Assembly (NCBI GenBank): GCA_030154045.1 | Contig: JASKKU010000008.1 | Coordinates: 1 to 35,218 of the forward strand | Origin: Candidatus Woesearchaeota archaeon | Lineage (GTDB): Archaea; Nanobdellota; Nanobdellia; Woesearchaeales; JASKKU01 | DNA length: 35,218 nt | Reading direction: 5' to 3' | In this document: piece by piece, positions 941 to 31,826 of the stretch | Numbering within the stretch: position 1 is the first letter of the stretch | Layout of the letters: each line of letters begins with the position of its first letter | The notes under the pieces: generated by a model | Told to the model about the DNA's origin: nothing | What the model saw: the letters and a program-made list of their open reading frames with translations, nothing else | The model's database searches: none | Translations under genes and position numbers: made by a program

Positions 941-1720
941 ATGAGTTTTATTGTTTTTAATCAGATTAATGGCTTAGATAACCTAATAAAAACGCGGCTT
1001 TCAGATTTGGTTGGTGCTCTTAAGAGTTTAAATAAATCAGTTTTTTTTCTAGATGAATTTAAGGAGTTCGCTTTTTTGCAGGATGTAAAAGATTATATCA
1101 TCTCGATACAAAAAGGGATAATCTATGGTTCTTCACAAGACCTTGAATATAGAGACTTACTTTTGAAATTTGTTAAAAAATTTAATTTTCATATTATCTT
1201 AGAACTCCCAGAGAATATCTTTTTAGACATAAACAACTTTTTGCCTTTTGAAGACACGATTTTCATAGGAATAAATGATAAAGTTAATTCTGATGCCGGA
1301 ACTTTTTTGTACAGACATCTTGTTGTTAAAAGAAATCTGTTTAAGGAGGTTATCGGAATACGATGCCTTGATTCTGATTTGATAGATATTTTTAGGATAA
1401 TTGCTATAGATAATAAGAAGTATTTGTTTATGAATCCGAATTTTTTGGTTAAAGACGCTTTATTATTTAATGAAAGTTCAGCATCCTTTTTTAATGTTAA
1501 GAAACTAAAGTCTGGCAAGAAGTTTTTTGAAGTTAAAGCAGAAGAGACTAGTTTGAAACATCTGAGATTTTTTATATATGGAAAAAATGTTCTTTTATTT
1601 GATGACGCCTTTAGACTTAAATCTTTTTTTGAGGAGCAGAAGTTTAACATCTTTTTGTTAAAGGCCGAGCTTAGAAATAAAGAAGTTTATCCCTTTAATC
1701 TAATAAGAGAGTTTTACTAA
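941..1720 (+). CDS. Hypothetical protein, no recognised family
   Basis: The 259-residue product begins MSFIVFNQINGL and ends LIREFY. The frame is open further upstream to 872, but that would overlap the TPI start; the ATG at 941 sits at leaderless distance from the shared TATA box, so I chose it. No signal peptide or convincing membrane segment is seen. The composition is rich in Phe, Leu, Ile and Lys with alternating hydrophobic stretches, as expected of a folded alpha/beta protein (inference). No nucleotide-binding, metal-binding or catalytic motif was recognised. Codon use resembles that of its neighbours. It is convincingly a gene because of its length, its promoter position and its fit between neighbours. 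Confidence 0.75.
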   Translation: MSFIVFNQINGLDNLIKTRLSDLVGALKSLNKSVFFLDEFKEFAFLQDVKDYIISIQKGIIYGSSQDLEYRDLLLKFVKKFNFHIILELPENIFLDINNFLPFEDTIFIGINDKVNSDAGTFLYRHLVVKRNLFKEVIGIRCLDSDLIDIFRIIAIDNKKYLFMNPNFLVKDALLFNESSASFFNVKKLKSGKKFFEVKAEETSLKHLRFFIYGKNVLLFDDAFRLKSFFEEQKFNIFLLKAELRNKEVYPFNLIREFY

Positions 1721-1788
1721 TTTTGATTTTAAATCTGGGCGTTTAATAACTAAGTGCTTTGCTTTTTTTGGTTCTAACTCAAAATATT

Positions 1789-1794
1789 TTTAAA
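1789..1794 (+). promoter_or_regulatory. TATA box of the Hel308 half-gene
   Basis: TTTAAA within a T/A-rich run is centred 29.5 bp before the TTG at 1821. That matches the spacing at other apparently leaderless genes in the window and supports independent expression of the half-length helicase gene. Confidence 0.6.
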
Positions 1795-1820
1795 TAGCTC
1801 TTTTTTCTAATAGTTTTAGT

Positions 1821-3383
1821 TTGAAAATCGAAGAGCATTCTAAAGACGAAGTTATTAATTTAGTTGTAGATACGCTTAAGAAAAACAAACAGGTTTTGAT
1901 TTTTGTTAATGCTAAACGAAGTGCAGAAAAGGTAGCTCTAGATATTGCTCATTTTTTAGAAAAGAACTTTAATAGATCAAACCTAAATCTTGATTTGAAT
2001 AAACTTAATGAATTGAGTAATAAGCTTGTTTCAGTACTTGAAAGGCCTACAGTGCAGTGCTTGAAGTTAGAGGAGTGTTCTAAGTTTGGAGTTTGTTTTC
2101 ATCATTCTGGATTGCTTCCTGAACAAAAAGAGCTGATAGAAACATCTTTTCGTGAAGGGATATTGAAAGTAATCGTGGCAACACCCACTTTGGCTGCAGG
2201 TGTTGACCTGCCAGCATTTAGAGTTATTATTAGAGACCTCAAAAGGTATAGTAGAGGAAGGTCTGTGTATATTCCGATTATGGAGTATATGCAACAGGCT
2301 GGTAGAGCAGGAAGACCTAAATATGATAATGTTGGAGAAGCTATAATTGTTGTTTCGAGCGTTTCTGAAAGAGAAAAAGCAATCAACGACTATATCCTGG
2401 GGGAACCTGAAGACATTTATTCTAAATTGGCAGTTGAGCCAGTTTTGAGAACCTTTGCATTATCTTTGATTGCCGGAAATTTCTTTAACACTGAAGAAGA
2501 TTTAATAACCTTCTTTAATAAAACATTCTGGTCTCATCAGTATAAGGATGTTGATAAGATAAGGTTTTTAATTAAAGGCATTATTTCTGAGTTGATAGAA
2601 AAAGGTTTCTTGTACATAGACAATGAATTTTATTATGCAACAAGTCTGGGTAAAAGGGTTTCAGAACTTTATCTAGATCCTTTGACAGCGTATGATTTTG
2701 TCAAAGCCCTTGAAAGAGTTGAGCAGTTTGATAGTTTTGCAATTCTGGTTTTGATATCGAAGTCTTTAGAGTTAAGACCTTTGCCTTCAGTGTATAAAAA
2801 GGACATTGATTGGGTTTATGAATTAATACAAGAGATACAAGATAGTTTGTTGTTTGACTTGCCTTCAGAATTTGATTACGATTTTGAAGAGTTCCTTAAA
2901 GCAGTGAAGTTTGCCAAGTTGTTGGATGATTGGATTAATGAACTTGATGAGGAAGAAATTTTAGAAAAGTATAATGTTAGGCCTGGAGAGTTGAGGGTTA
3001 AACTTGAACTGGTTGACTGGTTAATCTATGCGTTGATTGAGTTGGCTAAGGTTGTGAACAAAGTTAAGTTAGTAAACGATTTGTTTAGATTAAGAATGAG
3101 GTTGCATTATGGAGCTAAGGAAGAATTAATTCCTCTGCTTAAACTAAAAGGTATTGGGAAACATAGAGCAAGACTGCTTTATTCTAATGGCATTAAAAAT
3201 CTGGGGGATGTGAAAAAAGTAGGTTTCAAAAAACTTAAAGAGATAATTGGAGATAAGCTTGCGGTTAAAGTGCTTGAGCAAGTAAATATTACAGTTGAAG
3301 ATGAACTGCTTTCAAAAGAGGAAACAATTGGTAAACTTAAGAGGTTATCAAGAAGCAATCAATCATCGCTTAATGATTTCTGA
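1821..3383 (+). CDS. hel308: Hel308-type helicase, C-terminal half only (no RecA1)
   Basis: The 520 residues match archaeal Hel308 from the start of the second RecA domain to the end. Motif IV region VLIFVNAKRSAEK is at about residues 25-37, motif V ATPTLAAGVDLPA at about 120-132, and motif VI QQAGRAGR at about 158-165. Winged-helix, ratchet and C-terminal helix-hairpin-helix (LKGIGKHRARLLYSNGI) regions follow. Full-length Hel308 is about 700 residues; the missing part is the whole RecA1 domain with Walker A and the DExH box. An in-frame TAA lies at 1791-1793 and no ATG occurs for roughly 150 codons, so the likely start is TTG 1821, 29.5 bp after a TATA centre. All 520 codons are intact, which argues against decay. 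The RecA1 half is presumably encoded elsewhere. Hel308 remodels stalled replication forks. Confidence 0.88.
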   Translation: MKIEEHSKDEVINLVVDTLKKNKQVLIFVNAKRSAEKVALDIAHFLEKNFNRSNLNLDLNKLNELSNKLVSVLERPTVQCLKLEECSKFGVCFHHSGLLPEQKELIETSFREGILKVIVATPTLAAGVDLPAFRVIIRDLKRYSRGRSVYIPIMEYMQQAGRAGRPKYDNVGEAIIVVSSVSEREKAINDYILGEPEDIYSKLAVEPVLRTFALSLIAGNFFNTEEDLITFFNKTFWSHQYKDVDKIRFLIKGIISELIEKGFLYIDNEFYYATSLGKRVSELYLDPLTAYDFVKALERVEQFDSFAILVLISKSLELRPLPSVYKKDIDWVYELIQEIQDSLLFDLPSEFDYDFEEFLKAVKFAKLLDDWINELDEEEILEKYNVRPGELRVKLELVDWLIYALIELAKVVNKVKLVNDLFRLRMRLHYGAKEELIPLLKLKGIGKHRARLLYSNGIKNLGDVKKVGFKKLKEIIGDKLAVKVLEQVNITVEDELLSKEETIGKLKRLSRSNQSSLNDF

Positions 3384-29801: not shown

Positions 29802-31826
29802 TTAGATTATATTTATCTCTTCTCTTTTGTTTTTATAATCAGGCCTTACTTTGAAACCGTAGATTATTAGATAATTCCATAAGAAACCAGGCCTTTTAAC
29901 GAGCCTTACAACAAAACCGTTATTCTTGAATTTTTGTTCTAATTCGAGTTCGTTGCTTAAATATGGTGGATTTGGTAAAAATCCAAACAAATCACAGAAT
30001 TCTATAAAGTAAATCTGGCCGAAATCTTTAAGTTTCATCTTAACTCTTTTTAAAAATTCGTCTAAGTCGTTAACTGAATCAAGTATTCCATTGAATATTA
30101 GTACATCTGCTTTTTCCTCAAACTTAAGTTCAAGATTTGGGTCGTGTATTGTATAAAAGTCGTAAACTAGGATTTCTTTGTTTAATTGAATCTTGCTTAT
30201 CCTGTCTTCAACAATTTCTAAATTTCTCTCTGTTTGATCAGCCGCAATAATTCTGGAGGTAGCATCAGCATGTTTTATTAGTTCTTGTGTTAAGGTTCCA
30301 ACACCACAACCGTATTCTACAATAGTTTTGTCCTTTAAATCTCCTATTAGGGTAATGATTTCTTTTCTAATCTTTCTCGGGAGATTAACAGATTCTAGTA
30401 GAATGTAAGTTTTAGTGAGGTGTTCATTAAAAAAAGATTTTAGCTTTGGATTGTTGTATAACTGCATTAATAGATAGAATGGGAACCCAATTAAAATGAA
30501 GGATAAAGCAACGCTAAATAATATGGTAGCATTTGCTTGATATTTTATCCAAACTGCGATAATCAGAATAAGAATAAATGTAGTGATTAAAGGTCCAATC
30601 TTGCCTGCTGGTGCTTTAAATGGCCTTTCTAAGTTAGGTTTTTTTATTCTTAAATATGTGACTGCAATTAACATCGCGCTAATCATAGCAAAGCTTAAAG
30701 GCATAAGGATTTGAACTAAGGTGGCATAACCTGATTTTGTTAAGCCTATGAATGTAAATAAAATCATAATTATACTCTGGAAAATGATAGCACGGTAAGG
30801 TGTTTTGTAAACAGGGTGTACCTTGTTTAATTGTGGAATGAAAACTTTGTCTCTTGCCATAGCCATTAACAACCTTGGAGCACTTACTATCCAGTCAGCA
30901 GCTGAACCAAGTATGCTTAGAAAAATAAGGATTGAAAGTAGTTGTGAACCTTTTTCCCCCAAGAAATCAAAACCCAGTTTTTGATAGACCCAGCCAGGAT
31001 TTTCTTCTTGAAGAGCAGAATTGCTTAAATTAGCAACACCGAAGTAGCCTATGATTACAACAAGCGAAAGTATAGATACAATAGATAATATGATTTGAGC
31101 CCAGATTACTGCTTTAGGCACAACTTTTGAAGGATTTTTTGTTTCTTCGGATAATGAAAAAACGCTTTCCATTCCTAAGAAAATATCTGCGATAAATATC
31201 AAAGTTATAAACAGGTTGGTAAAATTTGCTTTGAAGTTGTTGGAAAGAAAGAAAGGGTTAAAGTTGGATAACGAAAAATTTCCTGAAAAAAAGATGACTA
31301 TGATAACTGCAATTATGAGTATAAGCTGTAATAATCCAAAAAACATAACAAACATAGAACTGAATTCGATTCCTCTGAAAGCAACATAATTAAATAATAT
31401 CAGAATTAGTATGCCGAGCACAATTTTGAACAAACTAGCGTTAATTGGAATATTAAAAAGAACAATAACCTCTTGCTGGAAGAAGTATTGCAATGCTGAG
31501 ACAACTAGCATTGCAGTAGTAAGGTTTCCTATGATCCATTCTATCCAACCTATTAAGAAACCTGTAAATTGGTTGTAAGCTTGTTTCGCGAATTCATAAA
31601 CTCCACCAATTGAAGGAAACATACTGGCAAGTTCTGCGAAGTATAGTACAATAACCATACTTAACAGCCCAACCAAAATCCAAGAGATTACTGCGCTTCC
31701 GCCACTCATCTGAACGCTAATAGCAGGAACAAAGAATATGCCTGAGCCCATAACTGAAGTTATAGCAAGAATTATTAAGATTGGCAGGTTTAATGATTTC
31801 TTTAATTCAGAATTGTTATTGTCCAT
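29802..31826 (-). CDS. Amino acid permease (APC) fused to a SAM methyltransferase
   Basis: One open frame of 674 residues joins two proteins. Residues 1 to about 457 are an APC-superfamily transporter with roughly 12 membrane segments; the conserved start is ITSVMGSGIFFVPAI, and GGVYEFAKQAY and SEETKNPSKVVPKA follow. Residues from about 470 are a class I methyltransferase: motif I VEYGCGVGTLTQELI near 503-517, then IIAADQT, DVLIFNGILDSV, GQIYFIEF and a C-terminal WNYLIIYGFKV. The C-terminal part recalls PmtA-like phospholipid or KsgA-like methyltransferases, but the substrate cannot be assigned. An AGAGGAC Shine-Dalgarno lies upstream of the ATG. The frame is continuous, with no stop or start signal at the junction near base 30455. 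Confidence 0.88.
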   Translation of the reverse strand: MDNNNSELKKSLNLPILIILAITSVMGSGIFFVPAISVQMSGGSAVISWILVGLLSMVIVLYFAELASMFPSIGGVYEFAKQAYNQFTGFLIGWIEWIIGNLTTAMLVVSALQYFFQQEVIVLFNIPINASLFKIVLGILILILFNYVAFRGIEFSSMFVMFFGLLQLILIIAVIIVIFFSGNFSLSNFNPFFLSNNFKANFTNLFITLIFIADIFLGMESVFSLSEETKNPSKVVPKAVIWAQIILSIVSILSLVVIIGYFGVANLSNSALQEENPGWVYQKLGFDFLGEKGSQLLSILIFLSILGSAADWIVSAPRLLMAMARDKVFIPQLNKVHPVYKTPYRAIIFQSIIMILFTFIGLTKSGYATLVQILMPLSFAMISAMLIAVTYLRIKKPNLERPFKAPAGKIGPLITTFILILIIAVWIKYQANATILFSVALSFILIGFPFYLLMQLYNNPKLKSFFNEHLTKTYILLESVNLPRKIRKEIITLIGDLKDKTIVEYGCGVGTLTQELIKHADATSRIIAADQTERNLEIVEDRISKIQLNKEILVYDFYTIHDPNLELKFEEKADVLIFNGILDSVNDLDEFLKRVKMKLKDFGQIYFIEFCDLFGFLPNPPYLSNELELEQKFKNNGFVVRLVKRPGFLWNYLIIYGFKVRPDYKNKREEINII

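What the first reader, a model, noticed from the sequence alone, without database searches (positions are those of the whole stretch)
1789..3383. Hel308 helicase reduced to its C-terminal half, with its own promoter
The protein aligns with Hel308 from exactly the start of RecA2 to the end, while RecA1 (Walker A, DExH) is absent and not encoded just upstream. The 520 codons are intact, an in-frame stop lies at 1791, and TTG 1821 sits 29.5 bp from a TATA centre as at other leaderless genes. This looks like a gene split at a domain border into two polypeptides that reassemble, as for several proteins of reduced archaea such as Nanoarchaeum. The alternative is a RecA2-ratchet protein with a non-helicase role.
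Basis: partly seen in the sequence, partly recalled or inferred. Interest (0 to 1): 0.78.

Follow-up and report, generated by a model that had tools for sequence, protein, structure and literature searches.

The report
DNA-repair helicase encoded in two pieces
A DNA-repair helicase that is one protein in other archaea (Hel308) is encoded here as two separate, unlinked genes, and the same cut between its two motor domains is found in nearly every genome of this archaeal order, so the enzyme most likely has to be put together from two proteins.

Summary
Confirmed and extended. Window 1821-3383 encodes the C-terminal part of Hel308 (RecA2, winged helix, ratchet, HhH). The missing RecA1 half exists in the same genome as a separate 223-codon gene on another contig (G000:C8:2242-2913, minus strand), with its own start, stop and TATA-like box. 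No full-length Hel308 was found in this genome.

The cut is not private to this genome. In a sample of 166 genomes of the same order (a named relative is Candidatus Woesearchaeota), 141 carry both halves and no listed match is full length. In other orders of the class, 26 of 28 Hel308 genes are single frames. A joint tree puts all split forms on one side of one branch, which fits a single ancient fission inside the RecA1-RecA2 linker with little or nothing lost. The core residues of the ATP site, divided between the chains, are invariant in 66 of 66 pairs. Most C-chains also end in a PIP-box-like tail.

Best explanation: an obligate two-subunit Hel308. Physical assembly is inferred, not shown. 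Nine full-text literature searches found no description of it. Novelty: new variant of a known kind.

The parts
1787..1794 (+). TATA-like box (TTTTAAATA region; perfect YTTAWAWA match centred 28 bp before the start codon)
   Evidence: perfect box 25-31 bp upstream of 10 of 27 gene starts in the window, 0-4 in shifted controls
1791..1793 (+). in-frame stop TAA upstream of the ORF: the frame cannot extend into a RecA1 domain
   Evidence: sequence
1821..3383 (+). Hel308 C-chain, 520 aa: RecA2 (motifs IV-VI), winged helix, ratchet (domain 4), HhH (domain 5)
2175..2219 (+). motif V of RecA2 (VATPTLAAGVDLPAF), the site where an intein sits in seven other C-chains of the order
2292..2318 (+). motif VI (QQAGRAGRP) with the arginine finger; Q158, G161, R162, G164, R165 invariant in 66 of 66 split pairs
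3360..3380 (+). PIP-box-like C-terminal tail QSSLNDF
   Evidence: same type in 57 of 79 non-full-length C-chains; FEN1 of the same genome ends QSSLSRWF

Best explanation
Hel308 in this archaeon is a two-subunit enzyme. A 223-aa N-chain (RecA1: Walker A, DExH, SAT motif), encoded on contig C8, and the 520-aa C-chain of the window (RecA2, winged helix, ratchet, HhH, PIP-like tail) associate in trans, form one ATP site at the RecA1/RecA2 cleft, and work as an ordinary 3'-5' Hel308 at stalled replication forks, probably recruited to PCNA through the C-chain tail. The gene was broken once, in the flexible inter-domain linker, in an ancestor of the order, and the halves were dispersed. Shown: both genes, the break point, co-occurrence, a tree consistent with one origin, conserved motifs, predicted folds. 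Inferred: physical assembly, helicase activity, PCNA binding.
For: The complementary RecA1-only ORF in the same genome. The same split in the order: 141 of 166 genomes with both halves, no listed match full length; single frames in 26 of 28 genomes of other orders. The cut lies in the 14-18-residue linker with little or nothing lost. Catalytic residues of both chains invariant in 66 of 66 pairs. Split forms on one side of one branch; N and C distances correlate, r 0.47 against a permutation maximum of 0.35. Each half folds with confidence and matches Hel308/Hjm structures best. Each has a TATA-like box.
Against: No direct evidence of association; the complex could not be modelled here. 13 order genomes have only the N-half and 8 only the C-half, some with high estimated completeness (G096, G116, G125). 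The branch separating split from full-length forms has only moderate support (SH-aLRT 80). The co-occurrence excess is modest (p 0.02) because both halves are nearly universal.
Confidence: 0.88

Rival explanations
1. The C-chain works alone as a DNA-binding RecA2-ratchet protein without helicase activity, and the RecA1 protein has a separate role or another partner.
For: 13 genomes with the N-half and no C-half and 8 with the reverse; no neighbourhood links the halves.
Against: Motif V and VI residues whose role is to contact a nucleotide held by RecA1 are invariant in 66 of 66 C-chains, while mean column identity of the chain is 47%. The N-chain has no DNA-binding or partner domain besides RecA1. 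The one-sided losses are of the size expected for draft genomes of 86-100% completeness.
Confidence: 0.06
2. The two chains are joined covalently after translation (protein trans-splicing) or their RNAs are trans-spliced, giving a single-chain Hel308.
For: Split inteins join the split DNA polymerase of Nanoarchaeum (own knowledge); inteins occur in some C-chains of this order.
Against: N-chains end at a stop codon mostly 1-5 residues after the hairpin with no intein fragment, and C-chains begin just before RecA2. The inteins found are whole and lie in motif V, far from the break.
Confidence: 0.02
3. Artefact: misassembly, binning error or decaying pseudogene.
For: The genome is a draft in 29 contigs; some order genomes lack one half.
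Against: The same break point in genomes of dozens of families, including one single-contig genome (G011, halves 37 kb apart on opposite strands); intact frames, conserved motifs, separate promoter-like boxes.
Confidence: 0.01

Closest known systems
Archaeal Hel308/Hjm helicase (Archaeoglobus fulgidus 2p6r, Pyrococcus furiosus 2zj2, Sulfolobus 2va8)
   Same: All five domains and all helicase motifs are present, in the same order, over the two chains; a C-terminal PIP box as in P. furiosus Hjm (PMC2636818)
   Different: Two genes and two polypeptides, cut in the RecA1-RecA2 linker; the known proteins are one chain of about 700 aa
Split protein genes of Nanoarchaeum equitans and Nst1 (reverse gyrase, PolB, Glu-tRNA amidotransferase and others; PMC3655853)
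   Same: A gene that is single elsewhere is broken at a tolerable site into two unlinked genes in a DPANN archaeon; some sites shared by relatives
   Different: Hel308 is not on that list; here one break is shared by a whole order of many families, and the genomes (0.6-2.1 Mb) are not the most reduced
Split Lhr helicase (NEQ003-409, Nst172-239; PMC3655853)
   Same: An SF2 helicase related to Hel308 encoded by two genes
   Different: A different family (Lhr), and the two nanoarchaea are cut at different sites

Membership tests
Hel308/Hjm helicase | RecA1 with Walker A, DExH and SAT motifs | tested here: met
   N-chain: TPTASGKT, DEIH, SATIGN; matches 2p6r residues 1-220
Hel308/Hjm helicase | RecA2 with motifs IV, V, VI and arginine finger | tested here: met
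   C-chain:
Hel308/Hjm helicase | Winged helix, ratchet domain 4 and HhH domain 5 | tested here: met
   HTH_61, PF21280 (E 8e-32), HHH_5; fold match to 2zj8/2p6r
Hel308/Hjm helicase | All domains in one polypeptide | tested here: not met
   Two ORFs on two contigs; neither half reaches the NCBIfam Hel308 cut-off. It is filed as a two-subunit variant, not as a standard single-chain member
Hel308/Hjm helicase | ATP-dependent 3'-5' unwinding of forked DNA | not testable with these tools
   needs purified proteins
Split archaeal protein genes (Nanoarchaeum type) | Gene single in relatives, here in two complementary ORFs at separate loci | tested here: met
Split archaeal protein genes (Nanoarchaeum type) | Products assemble into the functional protein | not testable with these tools
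   Supported indirectly by co-retention and conservation of the shared active site
Split-intein gene (Nanoarchaeum PolB type) | Intein halves at the break | tested here: not met
   N-chains end mostly 1-5 residues after the hairpin with no intein sequence
PIP-box proteins | Terminal QxxLxxFF-type motif | tested here: inconclusive
   QSSLNDF at the C-terminus; one aromatic instead of two; 57 of 79 relatives have a similar tail; binding not tested

The most novel reading that the evidence does not exclude
In a whole order of DPANN archaea Hel308 is an obligate heterodimer whose ATP site is completed only when the two chains meet, so that helicase activity can be controlled by subunit supply or by assembly on PCNA; in the lineages that seem to keep only the N-half, RecA1 may have found another partner.
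Probability: 0.25. Interest if true: 0.75.

Novelty: new variant of a known kind. Interest (0 to 1): 0.62.

Why it matters
SF2 helicases move by opening and closing two RecA lobes that are normally tethered by a linker. Here the tether has been absent across a large archaeal order, so the lobes must associate without it, or their association must be regulated. That makes a natural system to test what the linker does. It is also a clade-level gene fission in a core repair enzyme, useful as a rare-event marker for DPANN phylogeny. Automatic annotation is likely to miss it, because neither half reaches the curated Hel308 cut-off.

Tried and rejected
Assembly error or pseudogene: rejected by recurrence and intact motifs. 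Full-length copy elsewhere in the genome: none; the paralogue on C7 is a DSHCT Ski2-like helicase. Split-intein origin: rejected, no intein remnants at the break; the inserts in G008, G028, G040, G092, G103, G126 and G209 lie in motif V. Frames of 749, 769 and 653 aa in the order looked like re-fusions but are C- or N-terminal extensions without RecA1. A conserved operon linking the halves, or a conserved C-half neighbourhood: none found in 13 loci; the N-half lies near SRP receptor and prefoldin genes in 5 of 13. The search for related loci in genome contigs returned only one relative. Nine full-text literature searches found no report of a split Hel308; subscription papers and preprints were not covered. 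Co-folding the two chains was not possible with the single-chain structure tool.

Full report
OBSERVATION. The ORF 1821-3383 (+) is intact, 520 codons from a TTG, with an in-frame stop at 1791. Sequence comparison places it on Hel308/Hjm from residue 228 (2zj2, E 3e-96) or 233 (2p6r, E 1e-84) to near the end. Pfam finds Helicase_C, HTH_61, the archaeal helicase domain 4 and HHH_5, but no DEAD domain. The upstream frame 941-1720 has no Pfam match.

THE MISSING HALF. A DEAD-family search of the window's own genome (805 kb, 29 contigs, 95% complete) gave seven places. One, G000:C8:2242-2913 (minus), is an ORF of only 223 aa. It matches Hel308 residues 1-220, carries TPTASGKT, DEIH and SATIGN, and stops right after the beta-hairpin that ends RecA1. 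It starts with ATG and has a TATA-like sequence (7 of 8) centred 28 bp upstream. Its neighbours on contig C8 are unrelated. No full-length Hel308 is present: the ratchet family PF21280 hits only the window, and the best paralogue, on C7, is a DSHCT Ski2-like helicase.

DISTRIBUTION. In an even sample of 279 genomes of the phylum, 166 belong to the window's order. Of these, 149 have the C-half (PF21280 match) and 154 the N-half (E below 1e-35); by my tally of the two lists 141 have both, 13 only N, 8 only C and 4 neither (Fisher p 0.02). Listed C frames are mostly about 490-600 aa, apart from intein carriers, three extended frames and pieces at contig ends; listed N frames are 197-299 aa. In other orders of the class 28 genomes have a C match, and 26 of these are single frames of 624-755 aa, two of them apparently cut by contig ends. 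The other two are G276, broken by contig ends, and G266 (below).

BREAK POINT. In 24 full-length proteins the linker between the RecA1 hairpin and RecA2 is mostly 14-18 residues. In 67 split pairs the N-chain runs mostly 1-5 residues past the hairpin (two open-frame outliers, 13 and 23) and the C-chain starts mostly 12-17 residues before the RecA2 landmark. The cut is therefore at one place, in the linker, and little or nothing was lost.

ONE ORIGIN. A tree of joined N+C alignments (66 split, 24 full-length, 713 columns) puts all split forms on one side of one branch: one change, against 21 on average with shuffled labels. Support for that branch is moderate (SH-aLRT 80). N and C distances correlate (r 0.47; maximum of 2000 permutations 0.35), though part of that is shared ancestry. 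Hel308 is one chain in the other archaea with solved structures, so fission is the derived state.

FUNCTION. In the N-chain P-T-x-S-G-K-T of motif I, D-E-x-H of motif II and S-A-T of motif III, and in the C-chain T121, A125, G127, P131, Q158, G161, R162, G164, R165 and P166, are invariant in 66 of 66 pairs, at least as strict as in the full-length proteins. The mean column identity of the C-chain is 47%. An arginine finger has a role only beside a nucleotide held by RecA1, so selection appears to act on the joint site. Each half folds with confidence (pLDDT 92.5 and 90.3), and the best PDB matches of each are Hel308/Hjm structures. The most likely mechanism is association in trans to an ordinary Hel308 at stalled forks. 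Assembly itself is inferred.

C-TERMINAL TAIL. 57 of 79 non-full-length C-chains have Qxx[LIMV]xx[FYW] near the end, usually within KRKGQxSLxxY/F, against 3 of 24 full-length proteins and 2.7% of shuffled tails. The window protein ends NQSSLNDF; FEN1 of the same genome ends KQSSLSRWF, and PCNA is present. P. furiosus Hjm has a C-terminal PIP box required for PCNA interaction (PMC2636818). PCNA binding by the C-chain is likely but untested.

SIDE FINDINGS. Seven genomes carry an insert of about 500 aa in motif V of the C-chain (CTPTL|C...HN|S), identified in G040 as a whole intein with a LAGLIDADG domain. In G266, of another order, Hel308 is split independently directly after motif VI (GRAGRP-stop; the second part starts MTEKYGEAIS). 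The parts lie about 25 kb apart on opposite strands of one contig, as expected if one inversion had a breakpoint in the gene. This is a possible picture of how such splits arise, seen in one draft genome only.

OPEN POINTS. Several genomes of high estimated completeness have N without C (G096, G108, G116, G125), and both sampled members of genus g95 lack C. Three of the missing C-halves turned up as partial frames with a profile search (G256, G298, G301). Missing assembly is the simplest reading, but exchange of the partner is not excluded.

LITERATURE. Known split genes in Nanoarchaeota include reverse gyrase, Lhr, DNA polymerase I and others, not Hel308 (PMC3655853). A DPANN review mentions split reverse gyrase, tRNA synthetases and Dph1/2 (PMC6349945). 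Nine full-text searches found no split Hel308; subscription papers and preprints were not covered.

Noticed in passing
G266, L149:1457-2638 (-) and L150:946-2007 (+): Independent second split of Hel308 in another order of the class, directly after motif VI (GRAGRP-stop), halves about 25 kb apart on opposite strands; fits one inversion with a breakpoint inside the gene.
   Followed up: partly
L112, L113, L114, L115, L116, L117, L118 (C-chains of G092, G209, G126, G103, G040, G028, G008): Insert of about 500 aa in motif V of the split Hel308 C-chain, recurring at one site in several families; in G040 Pfam identifies a whole intein with a LAGLIDADG endonuclease.
   Followed up: partly
G096, G108, G116, G125, G253 and other genomes of the order: N-half present but C-half not found despite high estimated completeness; both sampled members of genus g95 lack it.
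   Followed up: partly
L110:2993-5275 (G041): Hel308 C-chain frame continues into a Methyltransf_30 (MnmC-like) domain: fusion with the next gene.
   Followed up: no
window 29802-31826 (-): Amino acid permease fused to a C-terminal SAM-dependent methyltransferase domain.
   Followed up: no
window 941-1720 (+): 259-aa protein directly upstream of the C-chain with no Pfam match, divergent from the TPI gene with closely spaced TATA-like boxes.
   Followed up: no
L120, L227, L233, L236, L240: In 5 of 13 loci the N-half gene lies near SRP receptor (FtsY-type) and prefoldin genes, while the C-half has no conserved neighbour.
   Followed up: partly
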